A stretch of DNA of 64,000 bases. It comes from an uncultured Bacteroidales bacterium (GTDB lineage Bacteria; Bacteroidota; Bacteroidia; Bacteroidales; Bacteroidaceae). Each line of letters opens with the position of its first letter. Positions within the stretch are counted from its first letter, which is position 1. The stretch covers positions 1 through 64,000 of the forward strand of contig CADCBO010000010.1 of the NCBI GenBank assembly GCA_902799685.1. Reading direction: 5' to 3'. The translations under genes and the position numbers were made by a program. Of the stretch, positions 41,347 to 48,572 are shown in pieces. The notes under the pieces were generated by a model that saw nothing but the letters and a program-made list of their open reading frames with translations, did not search any database and was not told the DNA's origin.

Positions 41347-42515
41347 TGCAGCAATACCGATGACAAGTCAAAGCTGTAGAGCAGCTCGTTGAAACCGTCC
41401 ATCCCATAGAGAATATTACGGCTTCCATCGTATGCAATATCCCACACGGGAACATCCAGTTTTACGGATTTAAGGAACCTGCCGTCCAAACCAAAGAAAA
41501 GCAGTTCTGCCAGCGGGCTTTCAGGGTCAGGCGAATTTATGCTGTAATCGCCGGCAAAATAGAGCACCATAAAGAATGAATCAGCATACGCGGCATGTCC
41601 AAAGTGCTGGATCATATTATCCTCTATATATTGCAGACCGTCTTCCGTCACCCCCTCAGTCAGCTCATAAGTGGGCAGCTTGTCATCAAAAGAGAGCGAG
41701 CCGGTCTGATGGACGGCAAAAGTCTTGTCTTTATCTATATCGATGAACAGGATGTAATCCATAGCGGAAAACGGCTGGATTATCAGGTTACGATCAGGAT
41801 GTTTCAATATCGATCCTTCATAATAGTCAACATCCTCCATATCAATGCTTGTAAGGAACTTGATTCTCTTTATCTCCATTGTATCCCGGCTGATACTGTA
41901 ATAAGGTTCCTCATAATAATCTGGATGAACAGTAAGGGCGGCATTGTACTCAAATGCATTGTAGATGTCATTGTTCAGGAACTGGAACTCTCTGGGGGCC
42001 GCAAAACCCACCTCAGCACCATCCAAATTGACTTTAATGAATCTGTAAGCGTAATAATCATCCCTTTGCTGTACTAATACGGTACTCTGGCGTTTTACAG
42101 ATTCCGTCAGGTCCAGCACCTTGATTCCACCGGACCTGCCGTCAACCAAAGGCACCAGAATACTGCCGTCAGGTTCCTTGAAGAACTGGCCTGATACCGT
42201 GCTTACTGAATATAGGAACTCATTCCTGGCCCGCCCTATATTGCAGAATGAGCCAAGCGGTTGCCATTGAGTGGAATAGACGTGCAACCGGGCCTGGTTT
42301 CCGCTGGATGTGACTATTATGAATGTATCACATACGGCTATTCCTGATGCTCCCAGAGGCAACTGCGCCTCTACAGGAATGCCATGAATAGTAATCTCTG
42401 ATTTGTTCATGAAATCCGTTTCAATCACATCAACGGCAACGCGATGCCTGCTACTGCAGGAACATATCAGTAAGGTTGTCAAAACTGACTTGGCTAACAA
42501 AGGAAAAGGTCTCAT
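41343..42515 (-). CDS. TolB-like 6-bladed propeller lipoprotein
   Basis: A 390-residue lipoprotein (TTLLICSCSSR, Cys about 18-20) of the TolB_like_6/BF3164 type (PF15869-like). CNIGRARNEFLYSVSTVSG corresponds to the GRGxGEY hallmark of the related family. It continues with DGSILVPLVDGRSGGIKVLDL and ends in DVPVWDIAYDGSRNILYGMDG, a propeller blade. It is translationally coupled (ATGA) to the 1306-residue surface protein, so the two likely act together at the outer membrane. Confidence 0.85.
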   Translation of the reverse strand: MRPFPLLAKSVLTTLLICSCSSRHRVAVDVIETDFMNKSEITIHGIPVEAQLPLGASGIAVCDTFIIVTSSGNQARLHVYSTQWQPLGSFCNIGRARNEFLYSVSTVSGQFFKEPDGSILVPLVDGRSGGIKVLDLTESVKRQSTVLVQQRDDYYAYRFIKVNLDGAEVGFAAPREFQFLNNDIYNAFEYNAALTVHPDYYEEPYYSISRDTMEIKRIKFLTSIDMEDVDYYEGSILKHPDRNLIIQPFSAMDYILFIDIDKDKTFAVHQTGSLSFDDKLPTYELTEGVTEDGLQYIEDNMIQHFGHAAYADSFFMVLYFAGDYSINSPDPESPLAELLFFGLDGRFLKSVKLDVPVWDIAYDGSRNILYGMDGFNELLYSFDLSSVLLQ

Positions 42516-42544
42516 AATTCAAATTCTATTTGATTACGGTTTCA

Positions 42545-42552
42545 CAAATATA
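42545..42552 (-). promoter_or_regulatory. -7 box of the propeller/surface-protein operon
   Basis: TATATTTG on the minus strand, 29 nt before the lipoprotein ATG. No good -33. Confidence 0.5.
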
Positions 42553-42606
42553 ATTCATTTTTTGTTAAAATGAGCGGAGGTTGTGACAATAAGTGAAAAT
42601 GTTGCA

Positions 42607-42614
42607 TATCTTTG
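42607..42614 (+). promoter_or_regulatory. -7 box of the aromatic amino acid operon
   Basis: TATCTTTG, exact match to TAnnTTTG, with a GTTG/TGTG element 21-23 nt upstream. Transcription would begin near 42621, right at the leader peptide ATG. Confidence 0.7.
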
Positions 42615-42622
42615 CGGACGAT

Positions 42623-42682
42623 ATGAGAACTGTTAACGCATACTTCTATTACTTTTGGTTTACCAGACAATATGCCGGGTAA
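42623..42682 (+). CDS. aromatic-rich leader peptide (attenuator)
   Basis: A 19-codon frame encoding MRTVNAYFYYFWFTRQYAG. Residues 7-13 are all aromatic (Tyr-Phe-Tyr-Tyr-Phe-Trp-Phe) and Tyr-17 follows. It precedes an intrinsic terminator (42718-42745) and the whole Phe/Tyr pathway operon, the classical layout of ribosome-mediated attenuation. Ribosomes short of charged tRNA-Tyr, tRNA-Phe or tRNA-Trp would stall here. The ATG is within a few nucleotides of the predicted transcript start, so the mRNA may be nearly leaderless. It is too short to be found by length alone; the call rests on residue composition and context. Confidence 0.85.
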   Translation: MRTVNAYFYYFWFTRQYAG

Positions 42683-42724
42683 TTTGTTGTATGCATTTTA
42701 AATAAGAAATGACAGAGAGCCCGG
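42675..42724 (+). promoter_or_regulatory. antiterminator pairing of the aro attenuator
   Basis: CCGGGT at 42675-42680, over the leader stop codon, can pair with GCCCGG at 42719-42724, the left arm of the terminator. A ribosome stalled in the aromatic run leaves 42675-42680 free (the last Phe codon is 42659-42661), so the terminator is blocked. A ribosome that reaches the stop covers this segment and the terminator forms. Confidence 0.65.
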
Positions 42725-42745
42725 ACAAATAATCCGGGCTTTTTT
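42718..42745 (+). terminator. attenuator terminator before DAHP synthase
   Basis: An 8-bp G+C-rich stem (AGCCCGGA at 42718-42725 with TCCGGGCT at 42733-42740), 7-nt loop and TTTTTT. It lies between the leader peptide and the first structural gene. Confidence 0.9.
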
Positions 42746-42776
42746 GTTACGAAACAGAAGACAAGAAACAGAAACT

Positions 42777-43787
42777 ATGATAGCAGTACTTAAAGCTGGA
42801 GTCTCAGAGACCCAAAAGAAAAACCTTATCAACTGGATCAAAGGCCAGGGAGTTGACGTACACATATCCGAAGGCCAGTTCCAAACGGTCATTGGTCTTA
42901 TAGGTGATACCAGCCGAATTGACCCCGACCTGCTTAGCGGACTGGACATTATTGAGAGCGTTACACGCATAAGCGAGCCGTTCAAGTGCGCCAACCGCCG
43001 TTTCCACCCCGCCGATACGATAGTAGAAATTGGTGAGGGTGAGAACAAAGTCCGTATTGGAGGCGGTAACTTTGCCATAATAGCCGGTCCCTGTTCAGTT
43101 GAATCTGAAGAACAGATAACCGGCATAGCCCAAGCCGTTAAGGCATCCGGAGCAACTCTGCTGCGCGGCGGCGCTTTCAAGCCCCGCACAAGCCCTTATG
43201 ATTTCCAGGGAATGGGTGCCGACGGCCTTGAACTTTTGCGCAAGGCTCGCAAGGCTACCGGTCTGCCCATCGTAACCGAGATCATGAGTGAAAAGCATCT
43301 GGATATGTTTGCCGATGTGGACATGATTCAGGTGGGAGCACGCAATATGCAGAACTTTGAGCTGCTCAAGACCCTGGGCCGCACCAAGAAGCCCATACTG
43401 CTTAAGCGCGGTCTGTCAAGTACCATAAAGGAGTGGCTCATGAGTGCCGAGTATATCATGGCCGGCGGCAATGAGAACATTGTGCTGTGCGAGCGAGGCA
43501 TTCGCAGCTATGACAACTACACACGCAACGTGCTTGACCTTTCGGCCATTCCTGTTGTAAAGGAACTGTCACATCTGCCCATCATAGTTGATCCCAGCCA
43601 CGCAACCGGCAAGTCACGCCTGGTTCCGTCAATGAGCCTGGCAGCTGTCGCAGCCGGTGCAGACGGCCTTATCATAGAGGTGCATAACGATCCGGAACAC
43701 GCCCTCTGCGACGGAGCACAGTCACTCACCCCGGCACAGTTTGACGAGGTGGCACGTAAAGTTAAGGCACTTAAGGAAATCGTTTAA
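42777..43787 (+). CDS. aroF: 3-deoxy-7-phosphoheptulonate synthase (type I-beta)
   Basis: A 336-residue DAHP synthase catalysing the first step of the shikimate pathway (PEP plus erythrose 4-phosphate). The N-terminal ferredoxin-like regulatory domain (about 1-75, MIAVLKAGVSETQKKNLINW) is followed by the barrel with IIAGPCSVESEEQ, LRGGAFKPRTSPYDFQG, MQVGARNMQNF-type sequence and VDPSHATGKSRLV. The arrangement matches the Thermotoga-type enzyme, where the N-terminal domain gives Tyr/Phe feedback. It has no chorismate mutase domain. ATG 42777 is chosen because the upstream 11 codons lie in the attenuator tail. Confidence 0.95.
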   Translation: MIAVLKAGVSETQKKNLINWIKGQGVDVHISEGQFQTVIGLIGDTSRIDPDLLSGLDIIESVTRISEPFKCANRRFHPADTIVEIGEGENKVRIGGGNFAIIAGPCSVESEEQITGIAQAVKASGATLLRGGAFKPRTSPYDFQGMGADGLELLRKARKATGLPIVTEIMSEKHLDMFADVDMIQVGARNMQNFELLKTLGRTKKPILLKRGLSSTIKEWLMSAEYIMAGGNENIVLCERGIRSYDNYTRNVLDLSAIPVVKELSHLPIIVDPSHATGKSRLVPSMSLAAVAAGADGLIIEVHNDPEHALCDGAQSLTPAQFDEVARKVKALKEIV

Positions 43788-43819: not shown

Positions 43820-44653
43820 ATGATTGTAGGAGTAGTAGGATTGGGGTTGATTGGCGGATCACTTGCCAAGACATACAAGGAAGCAGGATGGACTGTATAT
43901 GGTTTTGACCTGAACGAGTCTGTAAGCCGTTTTGCCGAACTTGAAGGCACACTTGACGCTGTGCTTGACAACAGGAACATAAAGAAATGTGACCTTATCC
44001 ATATAGCTGTCACCCCTGATGCCGCTTGCGGATGGATTGAGAAGCATGCTCCGGAAATAGCCAAAAGCACTATGGTGATTGATGACTGCGGCACCAAACG
44101 CAAGGTGGTGGAGTGCGGTATGAAAGCGGCAGAAAAATATGGGTTCACCTACGCCGGCGGACATCCCATGGCAGGAACACATCTATCAGGCTACAAGAAC
44201 TCACGCGCCACCATGTTCCAGAACGCATCCATGATAATCATCCCGCCCACCCACGATGACATCCAACTTCTGGACCGAATCAAGCACCTGCTTGAACCCA
44301 TGCTGCTGAAACGAGTGGTATTCACTACCCCTGAGCAGCATGACAGCATGATAGCGTTCACGTCGCAGCTGGCTCACGTGGTGTCAAACGCATACATCAA
44401 GAGCCCGTCGGCCCAACAGCACAAAGGCTACAGCGCAGGCAGTTTTCGAGACCTGACACGTGTGGCCTGGCTAAATGAGAATATGTGGACAGAGCTGTTC
44501 CTTGAAAACAAGGACAATCTGCTACGAGAGATACACACCTTGATAAACAACCTCACGCAGTACGCCGATGCCATGGAGGCCGATGATGCCAAGGCATTGT
44601 GCGCACTGCTGCGTGACGGACGCATAGCAAAGGAATTATCAGAAAAGAATTGA
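43820..44653 (+). CDS. tyrA: prephenate dehydrogenase
   Basis: A 277-residue NAD(P)-dependent enzyme that converts prephenate to 4-hydroxyphenylpyruvate for tyrosine. The Rossmann start is IVGVVGLGLIGGSLAKTYKEAGW. VIDDCGTKRKVVE and TYAGGHPMAGTHLSGYKNS hold the catalytic His region. The helical dimer domain has SQLAHVVSNAYI and FRDLTRVAWLNENMW. No ACT domain, so feedback control may rest on DAHP synthase and the attenuator. It starts right after the heptad array and is 3 nt from aroB. Confidence 0.95.
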   Translation: MIVGVVGLGLIGGSLAKTYKEAGWTVYGFDLNESVSRFAELEGTLDAVLDNRNIKKCDLIHIAVTPDAACGWIEKHAPEIAKSTMVIDDCGTKRKVVECGMKAAEKYGFTYAGGHPMAGTHLSGYKNSRATMFQNASMIIIPPTHDDIQLLDRIKHLLEPMLLKRVVFTTPEQHDSMIAFTSQLAHVVSNAYIKSPSAQQHKGYSAGSFRDLTRVAWLNENMWTELFLENKDNLLREIHTLINNLTQYADAMEADDAKALCALLRDGRIAKELSEKN

Positions 44654-44656
44654 GTT

Positions 44657-45712
44657 ATGGAAACCCCTACCCGAATCACCGTCAACGCCTCAGGCAAATA
44701 TGACATACTGCTCCGCAAGGGCGGTCTGAGCCATATTGGGGATGCTGTTGCGGAACGCTTCAAGCCCTGCAAGATAGCAATCCTGAGCGATGACAAGGTT
44801 TTTCCGCTCTACGGAAAGGTTGTTACGGAATCACTGGAGAGAGCTGGATTCAGCACCGTCAGCCACGTGATTGAGAACGGCGAACAGTCCAAGACCCTGG
44901 ACAATGTCACAGCGTTCATAGGCACGATGGTCCAGGCGCAGGTAACCCGTACCGATATGGTGCTGGCTCTGGGAGGCGGCGTTGTGGGTGATATGGCCGG
45001 ATTTGCTGCAGCCATATATCTGCGCGGCATACCTTACATTCAAGTGCCCACCACCCTGATGGCAGCTGTTGATTCATCGGTGGGAGGAAAGACCGCCGTG
45101 GATATCAGCTCCGGCAAGAATCTGATAGGAGCGTTTCACCAGCCCGCATTGGTATATCTTGATACCGATACACTTTCCAGTCTTGACCACGATGTGATGC
45201 GTGACGGATTTGCCGAAGTGCTAAAATACGGTTTCATACTGGACAAGGAACTGGCACAGGTTACCGCACGCCCCGGCACCTTTGACCTGGAGCAGGTGAT
45301 AGCCCGATGCATAAGCATCAAACGGGACGTGGTAGAACAGGATGAGTTTGACAAGGGCATGCGTGGCCTGCTCAACCTGGGCCACACATTCGGACACGCC
45401 ATTGAGAAGCTGAGCGGATTTACCATAACCCACGGAAGTGCTGTTGCACGCGGAATGGTAATTGCCGCCAAGGTGGGTGCAGAGTACGGTCTGCCAAACC
45501 TGACCGCCCAGATTACGGAAATTATAAAAGCATACGGTTTTGACACAGATTGCCCCTACTCCGCCGATGAGCTGTATGACGTAATCCTATCCGACAAGAA
45601 ACGCAGCGGAGCAGACATAACGCTCGTTCTGCCCGAATCCATCGGACACTGCGTATTAAGGAAGATGCCTGCCACTCAGGTTCTTGAACTGATGATAAAG
45701 ACTGGGCTATGA
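44657..45712 (+). CDS. aroB: 3-dehydroquinate synthase
   Basis: A 351-residue second-step shikimate enzyme, NAD and Zn dependent. Motifs: LALGGGVVGDMAGFAAAIYLRG, QVPTTLMAAVDSSVGGKTAVD, the metal-binding Glu in GFAEVLKYGFILD, and GLLNLGHTFGHAIEKLSGF with the metal His residues. Full length. Overlaps aroA by 4 nt (ATGA). Confidence 0.96.
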   Translation: METPTRITVNASGKYDILLRKGGLSHIGDAVAERFKPCKIAILSDDKVFPLYGKVVTESLERAGFSTVSHVIENGEQSKTLDNVTAFIGTMVQAQVTRTDMVLALGGGVVGDMAGFAAAIYLRGIPYIQVPTTLMAAVDSSVGGKTAVDISSGKNLIGAFHQPALVYLDTDTLSSLDHDVMRDGFAEVLKYGFILDKELAQVTARPGTFDLEQVIARCISIKRDVVEQDEFDKGMRGLLNLGHTFGHAIEKLSGFTITHGSAVARGMVIAAKVGAEYGLPNLTAQITEIIKAYGFDTDCPYSADELYDVILSDKKRSGADITLVLPESIGHCVLRKMPATQVLELMIKTGL

Positions 45713-46977
45713 CACTTGATGTAAGTGGAACTCTATCCGGAAACGTACAGGTGCCGCCGTCCAAATCGGTAGCGCACCGCATGCTCATATGCGCCGCACT
45801 GGCAGATGAGCCATGCTCCATTGCATGCCGCAGCGTGAACCGCGATATGGAGGCCACAGCGGCCTGCCTTAACGCACTGGGTGCCTACATCACATACACG
45901 GACGGCCGTTTCAACGTTACTCCAATAAGGAACATAAACAAGTGCAAATTGCTGGACTGCGGAGAGAGCGGTTCCACACTGCGTTTCCTTTTACCGGTAG
46001 CGGCGGCACTAGGTGCAGATGCCATATTCACAGGCCAGGGCCGTCTGCCGGAACGACCGCTCTCACCACTTTACGAGGAGATGACAGCCCACGGAATCCG
46101 AATGTCAAAAAACGGACGCATGCCACTGTCGTGCCAAGGGATCCTGCCAGCAGGAAACTATACGATTGACGGTGGCGTATCGTCACAATTCATATCGGGA
46201 CTGCTTATGGCTCTGCCTCTTACAGGAGCAGACAGCACCATTACCGTTACAGGGAAACTTGAGAGCGCATCATACATAGAGCTTACCATTAACGCCCTGA
46301 AACAGTTTGGGATTGAGATTCAGAAGAACGCAAACGGATACAGCATACCGGGAGAACAGAGATACTCCATACCGTCTGCCATGATTGCCGTTGAGGGCGA
46401 CTGGTCTGCCGCCGCATTCTGGCTTGTGGCTGGCGCAGCAGGCAGCAAAAGCATAACCTGCACAGGAATTGACTATGAGAGCTCTGCACAGGGTGACCGC
46501 CGTATAGTGGATGTACTGCGCAGTATGGGTGCCAACATCATTACAGGCAAAAATAACATCACGGCCATACCGTCCGGCCTGACCGCCGGCACCTTTGACT
46601 GTGCCGACATCCCTGACCTGGTTCCCATTATGGCTGTGGCGGCAGCAAAAGCACAGGGAACCACAATATTCAACAACATAAAGCGTCTTCGCATAAAGGA
46701 GAGCGACCGCATCCAGTCTATTCTGGAACTGCTGTCAGGGACAGGGATATGCTCCTATGCCACAGAGAACTCCCTGACCGTAACCGGAGGCCCAGCGCAC
46801 GGTATGCAATACGATCCAAACGGAGACCACAGAATGGCTATGGCAGCCACTATTCTGGCATCGGTCAAGAATGTAATCATCACCATCAAAGATTCAGAAT
46901 GCACGGCAAAGTCCTACCCTGCCTTTTTTGATGATTTCAATGCGCTTGGCGGACACGCCGGACAAAACGGACAATAA
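45709..46977 (+). CDS. aroA: 3-phosphoshikimate 1-carboxyvinyltransferase (EPSP synthase)
   Basis: A 422-residue EPSP synthase. The N-terminal PPSKSVAHRMLICAAL binds shikimate 3-phosphate. The PEP-site motif LDCGESGSTLRFLLPVAAAL is near residues 82-101. VSSQFISGLLMALPL, RLRIKESDRIQSI and GDHRMAMAATILA follow. It is slightly shorter than usual but contains all catalytic motifs. The GESGSTLRF form lacks the NAGTA segment of the common class, so it is the divergent Bacteroidota type. Coupled to aroB. Confidence 0.95.
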   Translation: MTLDVSGTLSGNVQVPPSKSVAHRMLICAALADEPCSIACRSVNRDMEATAACLNALGAYITYTDGRFNVTPIRNINKCKLLDCGESGSTLRFLLPVAAALGADAIFTGQGRLPERPLSPLYEEMTAHGIRMSKNGRMPLSCQGILPAGNYTIDGGVSSQFISGLLMALPLTGADSTITVTGKLESASYIELTINALKQFGIEIQKNANGYSIPGEQRYSIPSAMIAVEGDWSAAAFWLVAGAAGSKSITCTGIDYESSAQGDRRIVDVLRSMGANIITGKNNITAIPSGLTAGTFDCADIPDLVPIMAVAAAKAQGTTIFNNIKRLRIKESDRIQSILELLSGTGICSYATENSLTVTGGPAHGMQYDPNGDHRMAMAATILASVKNVIITIKDSECTAKSYPAFFDDFNALGGHAGQNGQ

Positions 46978-46988
46978 TACCTTACAAT

Positions 46989-48131
46989 ATGGAACTATCA
47001 GACTACAGAAAACAGATTGACGACATTGACGATGAGATATGCCGTCTTTTTGCAGAGCGCATGAACGTTGTGAATGAGATAGGCGAATACAAACGTAGCC
47101 ATGACTTGCCCGTAAACAGTGGTTCACGCGAGCGCGAGGTGTTGGCGCATATCTCAAAACAGCTCCCAGAGGACCTTGAAGACTTTGGACGAGTTCTATA
47201 TCGCTCCATGTTTGATGTAAGCAAGGCATACGAGGCCATGTACAAGGAGAAAGACTCGCCACTCTACAAAGCCGTATCAAGCCTTATAAACGCAGACCCG
47301 GCCCCTTTCCCCAAGCGCGCTGTAGTGGCTTGCCAGGGACGCGAGGGCGCATACTCCCAGATTGCCGCCGAGAAGCTCTTTGAGGTACCTGAGATAATGT
47401 ACAACAGCACATTCGAAGGTGTTATCCGTATGGTTACCGATGGACTTTGCGAGTATGGAATACTACCAATAGAAAATTCCACTGCAGGCTCAGTAAATGA
47501 AATATATGACCTGCTTATCAGGTACAACGTACACATAGTCCGAAGCACGCGTGTAAGAATTGACCACCAATTGCTGGCAGCCAAAGGCGCACAGCTTAAG
47601 GACATAAAGACCATCTACTCTCATCCGCAGGCCATTGACCAATGCTCACATTTCCTGAGCACACTCAAGGGTATCAATATTATTCCGTTTGACAACACCG
47701 CCATGGCCGCACAGAAGGTATCAAAAGACCCCAGCTGTTCGACAGCATCCATATCATCAAAAAGTTGTGCAGACCTTTATAACATGGAGGTTCTTGCACG
47801 CAACATCCAGAACTTTGACAGCAACCACACCCGCTTTATCTGCATAGCCAAGGATGCGCGCATATATCCGGGAGCCAACCGCACCAGCATAATGATGGTA
47901 GTAAGCCACAAGCCCGGAACGCTTTTCAGCGTGCTATCCAAGTTCAACGCCACCGGCGCCAATTTGGTCAAGTTGGAGAGCCGCCCCATCCCGGGCCGTG
48001 ACTTTGAGTTCATGTTCTATTTTGACATTGAGCTCTCCATCTATGACAAGAAGTTCGCATCACTCATAAGCGAGCTGGACCACTGCGGCGAGCAGTTCAA
48101 ATACTTTGGCACTTATCAGGAGATTATATAA
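46989..48131 (+). CDS. pheA: chorismate mutase/prephenate dehydratase (P-protein)
   Basis: A 380-residue bifunctional enzyme for phenylalanine. The AroQ-type chorismate mutase covers about 1-90 (LSDYRKQIDDIDDEICRLFAERMNVVNEI). The prephenate dehydratase domain is about 108-285 (VACQGREGAYSQIAAEKLF; GILPIENSTAGSVNEIYDLL; and the N-terminal half ends at RFICI). The ACT domain is about 300-375, with KPGTLFSVLSKFNATGANLVKLESRPI. ACT gives Phe feedback. It starts 11 nt after aroA. Confidence 0.95.
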   Translation: MELSDYRKQIDDIDDEICRLFAERMNVVNEIGEYKRSHDLPVNSGSREREVLAHISKQLPEDLEDFGRVLYRSMFDVSKAYEAMYKEKDSPLYKAVSSLINADPAPFPKRAVVACQGREGAYSQIAAEKLFEVPEIMYNSTFEGVIRMVTDGLCEYGILPIENSTAGSVNEIYDLLIRYNVHIVRSTRVRIDHQLLAAKGAQLKDIKTIYSHPQAIDQCSHFLSTLKGINIIPFDNTAMAAQKVSKDPSCSTASISSKSCADLYNMEVLARNIQNFDSNHTRFICIAKDARIYPGANRTSIMMVVSHKPGTLFSVLSKFNATGANLVKLESRPIPGRDFEFMFYFDIELSIYDKKFASLISELDHCGEQFKYFGTYQEII

Positions 48132-48140
48132 ATTCGCGGT

Positions 48141-48572
48141 ATGAAAAAGATTCTGGTAATAAACGGGCCTAACCTGAATATGCTGGGACTGCGCGAACCC
48201 GCCATATACGGCAGCCGTGACTACAATGCGCTTCTGGTATTCATCAGGGAATCGGCGACAGCCTTGGGACTGGAAGCGGAATGTTTCCAATCCAATCATG
48301 AAGGGGCTATTATAGATTGCATACAACAGGCTTACGGAGTATTTGACGGCATAGTGATCAACCCCGCCGCATATACGCATACCAGCGTGGCCATACTCGA
48401 TGCACTTAAGGCTGTGGCAATCCCTACGGTTGAGGTTCATTTGAGTGATGTTGATTCCCGTGAAGAATTCCGCCACAGGTCATTCGTGTCACTCTATGCC
48501 TGCAAGGTGATTAAAGGACACGGATTTGACGGCTACAGAGAGGCTCTGGAATACTTTTCAGAAAAAAAATGA
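48141..48572 (+). CDS. aroQ: type II 3-dehydroquinate dehydratase
   Basis: A 143-residue dodecameric-type dehydroquinase. Signature ILVINGPNLNMLGLREPAIYG includes the catalytic Tyr (about 24). QSNHEGAIIDCIQQAY, INPAAYTHTSVAILDAL and the His in VEVHLSDVDSREEFRHRS complete the active site. It is the last gene of the aromatic operon. aroE, aroK and aroC are elsewhere. A terminator follows. Confidence 0.96.
   Translation: MKKILVINGPNLNMLGLREPAIYGSRDYNALLVFIRESATALGLEAECFQSNHEGAIIDCIQQAYGVFDGIVINPAAYTHTSVAILDALKAVAIPTVEVHLSDVDSREEFRHRSFVSLYACKVIKGHGFDGYREALEYFSEKK

What the first reader, a model, noticed from the sequence alone, without database searches (positions are those of the whole stretch)
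42607..42745. Transcription attenuator with an all-aromatic leader peptide controlling the Phe/Tyr operon
A 19-codon ORF, MRTVNAYFYYFWFTRQYAG, has seven aromatic residues in a row. It is preceded by a TAnnTTTG -7 box and followed by a GC-rich intrinsic terminator. CCGGGT over the leader stop codon can pair with the left arm of that terminator, so a stalled ribosome would favour readthrough and a completed leader would favour termination. The operon behind it is aroF-tyrA-aroB-aroA-pheA-aroQ. Seen: the ORF, both hairpin options, the operon. Known: ribosome-mediated attenuation in proteobacterial trp/phe operons. Inferred: the mechanism in this Bacteroidota lineage. I do not know of this exact leader being described. 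The mixed Tyr/Phe/Trp content suggests response to all three amino acids.
Basis: partly seen in the sequence, partly recalled or inferred. Interest (0 to 1): 0.82.

Follow-up and report, generated by a model that had tools for sequence, protein, structure and literature searches.

The report
Aromatic leader-peptide attenuator before aroF operon
A tiny gene packed with phenylalanine and tyrosine codons appears to let a gut bacterium switch on its operon for making those amino acids only when they run short; switches of the same kind are common in its bacterial class, and here one sits before an operon that looks borrowed from Clostridia.

Summary
At 42623-42682 a 19-codon ORF (MRTVNAYFYYFWFTRQYAG) lies 8 nt behind a TAnnTTTG box and before an intrinsic terminator and aroF-tyrA-aroB-aroA-pheA-aroQ. 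Leader and terminator recur in all 22 same-genus loci read and in one genome of another family; the 8-nt spacing in 21 of these 23. Folding of nascent RNA gives an antiterminator when a ribosome sits on any of the seven aromatic codons and none when it reaches the stop. Best reading: ribosome-mediated transcription attenuation responding to Phe/Tyr-tRNA charging. Trp is doubtful: 5 of 23 leaders lack it.

Beyond the finding: aromatic leaders precede the ordinary pheA gene in 30 of 31 family loci read and 27 of 31 elsewhere in the class; a flavobacterial paper had noted pheA and hisG elements (PMC9723704, passages). The operon's AroF groups inside Clostridia, and 63 of 76 mostly Clostridial aroF loci also have aromatic leaders. 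The window's leader resembles resident Bacteroidia pheA leaders more than Clostridial ones, suggesting that a resident-type switch took over a foreign operon. No experimental data were available.

The parts
42607..42614 (+). TAnnTTTG -7 promoter element (TATCTTTG)
   Evidence: Sequence; present in 23 of 23 leaders of this type, 8 nt from the leader ATG in 21. Consensus as in PMC7366714 (passage). Transcription start not mapped.
42623..42682 (+). Leader peptide ORF MRTVNAYFYYFWFTRQYAG, near-leaderless (inferred from the promoter spacing)
   Evidence: aromatic run kept in 22 of 22 same-genus loci read and in L042.
42641..42661 (+). Control codons: seven aromatic codons Y F Y Y F W F
   Evidence: with a ribosome on any of these, nascent RNA folds into the antiterminator; by two to three codons later it no longer does.
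42638..42643 (+). Segment 1, GCATAC (outer arm of stem 1:2; inner pairing 42648-42659 with 42674-42683)
   Evidence: fold; 94.6% of pair cells kept over 22 distinct rows.
42675..42694 (+). Segment 2, CCGGGTAATTTGTTGTATGC: pairs with segment 1 or segment 3, overlaps the leader stop
42712..42724 (+). Segment 3, ACAGAGAGCCCGG: 3' arm of antiterminator; its GCCCGG is the 5' arm of the terminator
42718..42745 (+). Intrinsic terminator (stem 42718-42725/42733-42740, U tract 42740-42745)
   Evidence: 100% of pair cells standard in 22 distinct rows.
42777..43787 (+). aroF, DAHP synthase with ferredoxin-like N-terminal domain
   Evidence: PF00793, PF18152.
43820..44653 (+). tyrA, prephenate dehydrogenase
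   Evidence: PF02153, PF20463.
44657..45712 (+). aroB, 3-dehydroquinate synthase
   Evidence: PF01761, PF24621.
45709..46977 (+). aroA, EPSP synthase
   Evidence: PF00275.
46989..48131 (+). pheA, chorismate mutase/prephenate dehydratase fusion
   Evidence: PF01817, PF00800.
48141..48572 (+). aroQ, type II dehydroquinase
   Evidence: PF01220.

Best explanation
The region is a ribosome-mediated transcription attenuator for the Phe/Tyr operon. RNA polymerase starts a few bases upstream of 42623, and a ribosome starts almost at the 5' end of the RNA. If Phe- or Tyr-tRNA is short of its amino acid, the ribosome stalls in the aromatic run; segment 2 stays free and pairs with segment 3, so the terminator cannot form and the operon is read. 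If both are plentiful, the ribosome reaches the stop codon, covers segment 2, segment 3 pairs with segment 4, and transcription ends near 42745. Shown here: the parts, their conservation, the mutually exclusive pairings and their dependence on ribosome position in silico. Inferred: the transcription start, translation of the leader, stalling, and termination in the cell.
For: Aromatic run kept while its residues interchange (YFYYFWF, YYFYFWF, YFFYFYF, YFDFYYF, YFYFYYYF) in 22 of 22 genus loci read and L042. Terminator 100%, antiterminator 95.0% and stem 1:2 94.6% of cells paired over 22 distinct rows, against at most 64% when one arm is slid. Position model: antiterminator probability 1.00 in nascent RNA with a ribosome on any of the seven control codons, 0.00 at the stop, for assumed footprints of 11, 13 and 15 nt. 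Over 23 Bacteroidota leaders the terminator 5' arm is captured 0.65 when stalled, 0.12 when completed, 0.36 with shuffled spacer; 23 of 23 in the expected direction. The same architecture stands before native pheA: 27 of 27 (family) and 27 of 27 (class) leaders with a found terminator go the same way, with compensatory change in the antiterminator of 23 family rows (one pair A-U in 13, G-C in 8; covariation score above all 500 shuffles).
Against: No RNA or reporter data. In equilibrium folds the untranslated nascent leader also gives the antiterminator (1.00), so stem 1:2 would have to form first kinetically for an untranslated leader to terminate; and the full-length RNA favours the terminator in every state, so the switch depends on timing. 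Covariation within the 23 rows alone is weak because most are close: 1, 2 and 2 pairs with double change, and for stem 1:2 the covariation score is reached by 62 of 500 shuffles. Structures taken from one row tend to beat slid versions for that reason alone. For L023 and L042 shuffled spacers do as well in about a third of trials.
Confidence: 0.87

Rival explanations
1. Origin rival A: the attenuator came in with the operon from Clostridia, exchanging only its promoter and start region; two sister lineages then lost it.
For: AroF of 33 Bacteroidota rows is nested among Bacillota rows with Clostridia L057 as sister (SH-aLRT 96 and 99); 63 of 76 mostly Clostridial aroF loci have aromatic leaders, L057 among them, with a similar stop/antiterminator layout by eye; 15 of 77 are hit at the right place by the Bacteroidota model, weakly. 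Counted by hand on the tree it needs two losses, no worse than one loss and one gain.
Against: The model scores these leaders at most 27.1 bits but family pheA leaders up to 33.8 (20 of 22 loci hit) and other order members up to 50.8 (picked by that score). Sequence after the aromatic run is closer to native leaders: mean excess over shuffles 15.0 (family), 18.6 (class), 7.9 (Clostridial type). Sister genera g21 and g22 have the operon or part of it but no such leader was seen.
Confidence: 0.35
2. Origin rival B: the leaders arose independently, and look alike because aromatic codons plus a terminator and a competing stem leave little freedom.
For: Phe and Tyr codons are all T-rich and the hairpin arms are short, so similarity is easily reached; the 8-nt spacing of the window type (21 of 23 from TAnnTTTG) differs from the 19-34 nt between the last TTTG and the ATG in 28 of 30 family pheA leaders; none of four neighbouring genes tested lies next to native pheA in the 22 loci tested.
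Against: Similarity after the aromatic run exceeds dinucleotide shuffles for native leaders.
Confidence: 0.2
3. The ORF is a chance aromatic ORF next to an ordinary terminator of a small RNA or of upstream transcription, without regulatory role.
For: Short ORFs abound; no expression data.
Against: Conserved in 23 of 23 loci read with changing but mostly aromatic residues; aromatic leaders upstream of aroF 63 of 76 against 14 of 1520 shuffles and of family pheA 30 of 31 against 4 of 620.
Confidence: 0.03
4. The leader senses translation speed in general or a ligand, or uses a nascent-peptide arrest, rather than Phe/Tyr-tRNA charging.
For: Not excluded by sequence alone.
Against: Aromatic content is kept while order, flanking residues and C-termini vary, which I would not expect of an arrest peptide (general knowledge); the regulated genes make Phe and Tyr.
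Confidence: 0.07

Closest known systems
Phe_leader (Rfam RF01859), pheA/pheST attenuators of Gammaproteobacteria
   Same: Aromatic-rich leader peptide, terminator and competing antiterminator, Phe pathway genes behind it (recalled for the proteobacterial cases).
   Different: 18.9 bits against a gathering score of 55, so not a member; no Shine-Dalgarno sequence seen, near-leaderless start, mixed Phe/Tyr run, different class of bacteria.
Trp_leader (RF00513)
   Same: Three-stem attenuator logic (recalled); best Rfam score in the region.
   Different: 23.2 bits against gathering 41; only one Trp codon and not conserved.
Structured 5' elements upstream of pheA and hisG in Flavobacteriaceae (F. 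psychrophilum transcriptome, PMC9723704; passages seen)
   Same: Same genes, same phylum, leader-peptide attenuation proposed for amino-acid operons, no Rfam hit reported.
   Different: The passages give no leader sequences, and supplements could not be read. Here the gene behind the leader is a foreign-looking aroF operon, and the survey covers more of the class.
Short ORFs in long 5' UTRs of B. thetaiotaomicron, 'reminiscent of leader peptides' (PMC7366714; passages seen)
   Same: Same order or class of bacteria, attenuation suggested.
   Different: The passage names a hypothetical protein gene, not aromatic pathway genes.
His attenuators in Firmicutes (PMC9413887, passages; Bacillus his leaders of PMC2965389, passages)
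   Same: Amino-acid leader attenuators in Firmicutes where T-boxes are usual.
   Different: Histidine, not aromatic; aromatic aroF leaders are not mentioned in the passages seen.

Membership tests
Ribosome-mediated amino-acid attenuators (kind) | Short leader ORF with clustered codons of the amino acid made by the operon | tested here: met
   Translation itself not tested.
Ribosome-mediated amino-acid attenuators (kind) | Intrinsic terminator between leader and first gene | tested here: met
Ribosome-mediated amino-acid attenuators (kind) | Antiterminator exclusive of the terminator, available when the ribosome stalls at the control codons and masked when it finishes | tested here: met
   In silico only.
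Ribosome-mediated amino-acid attenuators (kind) | Stem 1:2 that ends antitermination when the leader is untranslated | tested here: inconclusive
   Stem conserved but loses to 2:3 in the equilibrium nascent fold.
Ribosome-mediated amino-acid attenuators (kind) | Read-through rises when the cognate amino acid is short | not testable with these tools
   Needs an RNA or reporter experiment.
Rfam Phe_leader RF01859 | Score at or above gathering (55 bits) | tested here: not met
   18.9 bits.
Rfam Trp_leader RF00513 | Score at or above gathering (41 bits) | tested here: not met
   23.2 bits.
T-box riboswitch | Rfam match upstream of the operon | tested here: not met
   None in window 42000-43500; none at gathering score in 15 of the 78 mostly Clostridial loci, the only ones scanned.
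Resident Bacteroidia pheA attenuators (as seen here) | Found by a model of the window-type leaders and sharing sequence after the aromatic run | tested here: met
   20 of 22 family pheA loci hit at or overlapping the leader; composition-controlled similarity above that of Clostridial-type leaders.
Resident Bacteroidia pheA attenuators (as seen here) | Same promoter-to-ATG spacing as family pheA leaders | tested here: not met
   8 nt in 21 of 23 against 19-34 nt in 28 of 30 (any TTTG).

The most novel reading that the evidence does not exclude
Regulatory recapture across phyla: a Clostridial shikimate/Phe/Tyr operon entered Bacteroidota and, in the lineage of this genus, lost its own aromatic attenuator and came under a resident-type Phe/Tyr attenuator of the class, while the resident pheA gene was lost; two distant phyla would then run the same pathway by the same kind of ribosome-sensing switch, and the switch rather than the genes is what the host kept.
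Probability: 0.45. Interest if true: 0.72.

Novelty: new variant of a known kind. Interest (0 to 1): 0.6.

Why it matters
Leader-peptide attenuation is textbook for Proteobacteria. In Bacteroidia, and in the Clostridia sampled here, it looks like a common control of Phe/Tyr synthesis, yet no Rfam family matched at its cut-off in the window region or in the 15 aroF and 18 pheA/hisG loci scanned. Bacteroidota mRNAs lack Shine-Dalgarno sequences (PMC7366714, passage), so a near-leaderless leader would test how tightly transcription and translation are coupled there. A foreign operon under a resident-type switch would be a natural test of whether regulation or genes are kept after transfer. The survey gives candidates to test in culturable relatives.

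Tried and rejected
Trp auxotrophy as a reason for or against the Trp codon: trpE was not found in the window's own assembly, but it is in 18 of 37 genus genomes, so the absence may be an assembly gap; dropped. A Trp leader before trpE in two genus genomes: the upstream stretch looks coding by eye; the only ORF with two Trp is a 6-codon MWWFLP in L305; no leader claimed. In-place replacement of the native pheA: none of four neighbouring genes tested (two upstream, two downstream) lies beside the 22 native family pheA loci within their short flanks; not supported. T-box control of the Clostridial operons: none in 15 of 78 loci scanned.

Literature. Among the titles and abstract openings listed (10 of 10, 25 of 145, 9 of 9, 20 of 49, 3 of 3, 6 of 6, 0 of 0 and 20 of 76) I saw none on an aromatic leader before aroF in Clostridia or Bacteroidales; no paper held prephenate dehydratase, leader peptide and Bacteroides together. 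A 2010 comparative survey of attenuation by Lopatovskaya and others, seen only in listings and reference lists, was not read; from memory it may list Bacteroidetes cases, so priority is not claimed.

Rows dropped or weak. In one search rows L248 and L265 are the same genome (G549); the figure is used instead (27 of 31; of 32 class genomes outside the order with a match, L282 of G632 did not align). Eight of the 30 loci returned (L204, L206, L207, L208, L211, L223, L224, L226) carry the fused or distant type of pheA and were left out of the native count; none showed an aromatic leader before that gene. The pair count used 23 of 30 family leaders: six were left out because my script cut them short and L209 was left out without a reason. 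In one search six of 64 Clostridial-type leaders had no terminator by my script (L065 and L071, for two, show one by eye), 4 of the other 58 had one weaker than -8 kcal/mol, and 10 of 58 went against expectation. Three of 30 family leaders had no terminator by my script. Of the 28 model hits other than the window type that were returned as loci, 13 precede pheA, 3 an aminotransferase-like protein (by eye), and 12 showed no convincing leader. The leader scans count ATG starts only.

Full report
What is there. The coordinates and anatomy of the finding are right. TATCTTTG (42607-42614) is followed after 8 nt by ATG 42623; the ORF MRTVNAYFYYFWFTRQYAG ends at 42682; CCGGGT (42675-42680) overlaps the stop; the terminator stem is 42718-42725/42733-42740 with six T; aroF begins at 42777. 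Pfam matches give DAHP synthase, prephenate dehydrogenase, DHQ synthase, EPSP synthase, chorismate mutase/prephenate dehydratase and type II dehydroquinase in that order. The RNA folds better than dinucleotide shuffles (z -4.18, 1 of 200 as good). No Rfam family reaches its cut-off; the nearest leaders are Trp_leader at 23.2 bits (cut-off 41) and Phe_leader at 18.9 (cut-off 55).

Conservation. In 37 genomes of the genus, 24 places in 22 genomes encode this AroF at 81% identity or more. I read one place in each of the 22 genomes; all have the leader and terminator, and so does L042 from another family. The aromatic residues swap places but the run stays mainly aromatic. TAnnTTTG is in 23 of 23, 8 nt from the ATG in 21, 9 in one, 39 in one where a hairpin fills the gap. 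With a -7 element so near, the 5' untranslated part should be only a few bases; that is inferred, since no start was mapped. In B. thetaiotaomicron only about 3.7% of 5' UTRs are under 10 nt (PMC7366714, passage), so this would be unusual.

Switch. Three stems compete: 1:2 (42638-42643 with 42689-42694 and an inner part), 2:3 (CCGGGT and TTTGT with ACAGA and GCCCGG) and the terminator 3:4. Over 22 distinct rows, 94.6, 95.0 and 100% of cells are standard pairs, against at most 64% when one arm is slid. Covariation within these close rows is weak (2, 2 and 1 pairs with double change; for stem 1:2 the score is reached by 62 of 500 shuffles). I then modelled ribosome positions: RNA from 11, 13 or 15 nt beyond the start of the A-site codon is free. 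With the ribosome at any of the seven aromatic codons, nascent RNA up to the terminator loop has 2:3 at 1.00; at the stop it is 0.00; it falls to zero two or three codons after the run. Across 23 such leaders the stalled and completed values are 0.65 and 0.12, shuffled spacers 0.36. Against: with no ribosome the equilibrium nascent fold also gives 2:3, and full-length RNA prefers the terminator in every state, so order of folding matters.

Wider family. A covariance model of the 23 leaders, searched over 393 genomes of the order, hit 50 at E up to 0.01. Of the 28 other hits returned as loci, 13 are aromatic leaders before pheA (prephenate dehydratase), 3 before an aminotransferase-like protein, 12 unconvincing. 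To avoid that selection I took pheA loci by Pfam match alone. In the family, 30 of 31 native pheA genes examined (the 22 unfused ones among the 30 best-scoring loci, plus 9 that I chose from its table) have a leader with at least 5 aromatics in 7 residues, against 4 of 620 shuffles. In class members outside the order, 27 of 31 do (shuffles 14 of 640, which counted one genome twice). Every leader for which the script found a terminator (27 of 30 and 27 of 27) shows more antiterminator when stalled than when completed: mean 0.80 against 0.14 and 0.75 against 0.14. In 23 of the 30 family leaders the antiterminator shows compensatory change: 10 double-changed cells against 3.8 expected, 0 of 500 shuffles as high, though the outermost pair is broken in 10 of 23. 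Of the 30 top-scoring pheA loci of the phylum search, 28 lie outside the class and none of these has such a leader; of the two inside the class one has. Rfam finds nothing at cut-off in 12 pheA and 6 hisG loci. A Flavobacterium psychrophilum transcriptome paper had already reported strong clues for leader-peptide attenuation before amino-acid operons and conserved 5' elements at pheA and hisG without Rfam hits (PMC9723704, passages). So the kind, and its presence in the class, were known in outline.

The operon looks foreign. AroF relatives of this closeness are rare in the order: 12 of 198 genomes match at E up to 1e-80, and only the window's own and one other exceed 80% identity. The 80 named relatives kept are mostly Clostridia, with a few Spirochaetota and two assemblies labelled Bacteroidaceae (a capped list). 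In a tree of 121 AroF proteins the 33 Bacteroidota rows form one group (SH-aLRT 96) with Clostridia L057 (99) inside an 84-row group whose other rows are labelled Bacillota or Spirochaetota, one unnamed (quick search, midpoint root, 43 of 118 inner branches open; the direction of transfer is inferred from the nesting). Gene order aroF-tyrA-aroB-aroA is shared with most of those loci. The window's genome has one prephenate dehydratase, the one in this operon, so the resident pheA appears lost (assembly 86% complete).

These relatives have aromatic leaders too: 63 of 76 with at least 5 of 7 aromatics in the 300 nt before aroF, against 14 of 1520 shuffles and 5 of 1419 other places in the same loci. 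Of 58 with a terminator found, 48 go in the expected direction (0.66 against 0.36; shuffled spacer 0.49), a weaker result than in Bacteroidota. No T-box was found in the 15 loci scanned.

Whose switch is it? The window-type model scores the Clostridial-type leaders at most 27.1 bits (15 of 77 loci at the right place), family pheA leaders up to 33.8 (20 of 22), other order members up to 50.8. Similarity after the aromatic run, corrected by shuffles, averages 15.0 (family), 18.6 (class) and 7.9 (Clostridial type). Sister genera with the operon show no leader. This favours a resident-type attenuator placed before a foreign operon, but the promoter spacing differs from family pheA leaders (19-34 nt from the last TTTG in 28 of 30), no tested neighbouring gene links the two places, and parsimony does not decide. 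I put capture of a resident leader at about 0.45, carriage with the operon at 0.35 and independent origin at 0.2.

Specificity. Tyr and Phe codons dominate; Trp is in 18 of 23 window-type leaders, 1 of 30 family, 15 of 27 class and 3 of 64 Clostridial-type leaders. The five most divergent window-type leaders lack it. A response to all three is therefore not supported; Phe and Tyr are.

Verdict. A conserved attenuator of a known kind in a variant form (near-leaderless, mixed Phe/Tyr, before a foreign-looking operon), and the entry to a class-wide set that Rfam does not hold. All functional steps remain to be tested.

Noticed in passing
L143 (G000 contig C17, upstream of hisG), ORF at L143:1218: The same genome has a His leader MNRTATYHHHHTCRS before hisG, again 8 nt behind a TTTTTG element, with a terminator and a complementary segment by eye. 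In 31 hisG loci (own plus the 30 best-scoring of the order search), 26 have at least 3 His in 6 residues (shuffles 5 of 620) and 22 at least 4 (0 of 620).
   Followed up: partly
L057-L134, 300 nt upstream of aroF: Aromatic leaders before aroF in 63 of 76 mostly Clostridial loci, with Shine-Dalgarno starts and sigma-70-like promoters by eye in several; no leader or T-box family of Rfam in 15 scanned.
   Followed up: partly
L021 (G015) upstream of its leader: The only row of 23 with a 39-nt gap between the -7 element and the leader ATG; the gap holds a hairpin (GGTGCCTGAA...TTCAGGCACC) near the expected 5' end of the RNA.
   Followed up: no
G003 and G013: Two very similar places for this aroF in each assembly, perhaps mixed strains or a duplication; the second places were not read.
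   Followed up: no
L053 7447-8526 (G000 contig C14): A second DAHP synthase, by eye of the type fused to chorismate mutase, lies between a recQ-like gene and a hydrolase-like gene, not with pheA, consistent with loss of the resident pheA operon.
   Followed up: partly
Leader C-termini in L008, L010, L011, L012, L018: A one-base difference near the end turns QYAG-stop into an earlier TAG just before CCGGG; the peptide end shifts but the DNA after it stays the same, so the end of the peptide seems unimportant.
   Followed up: no
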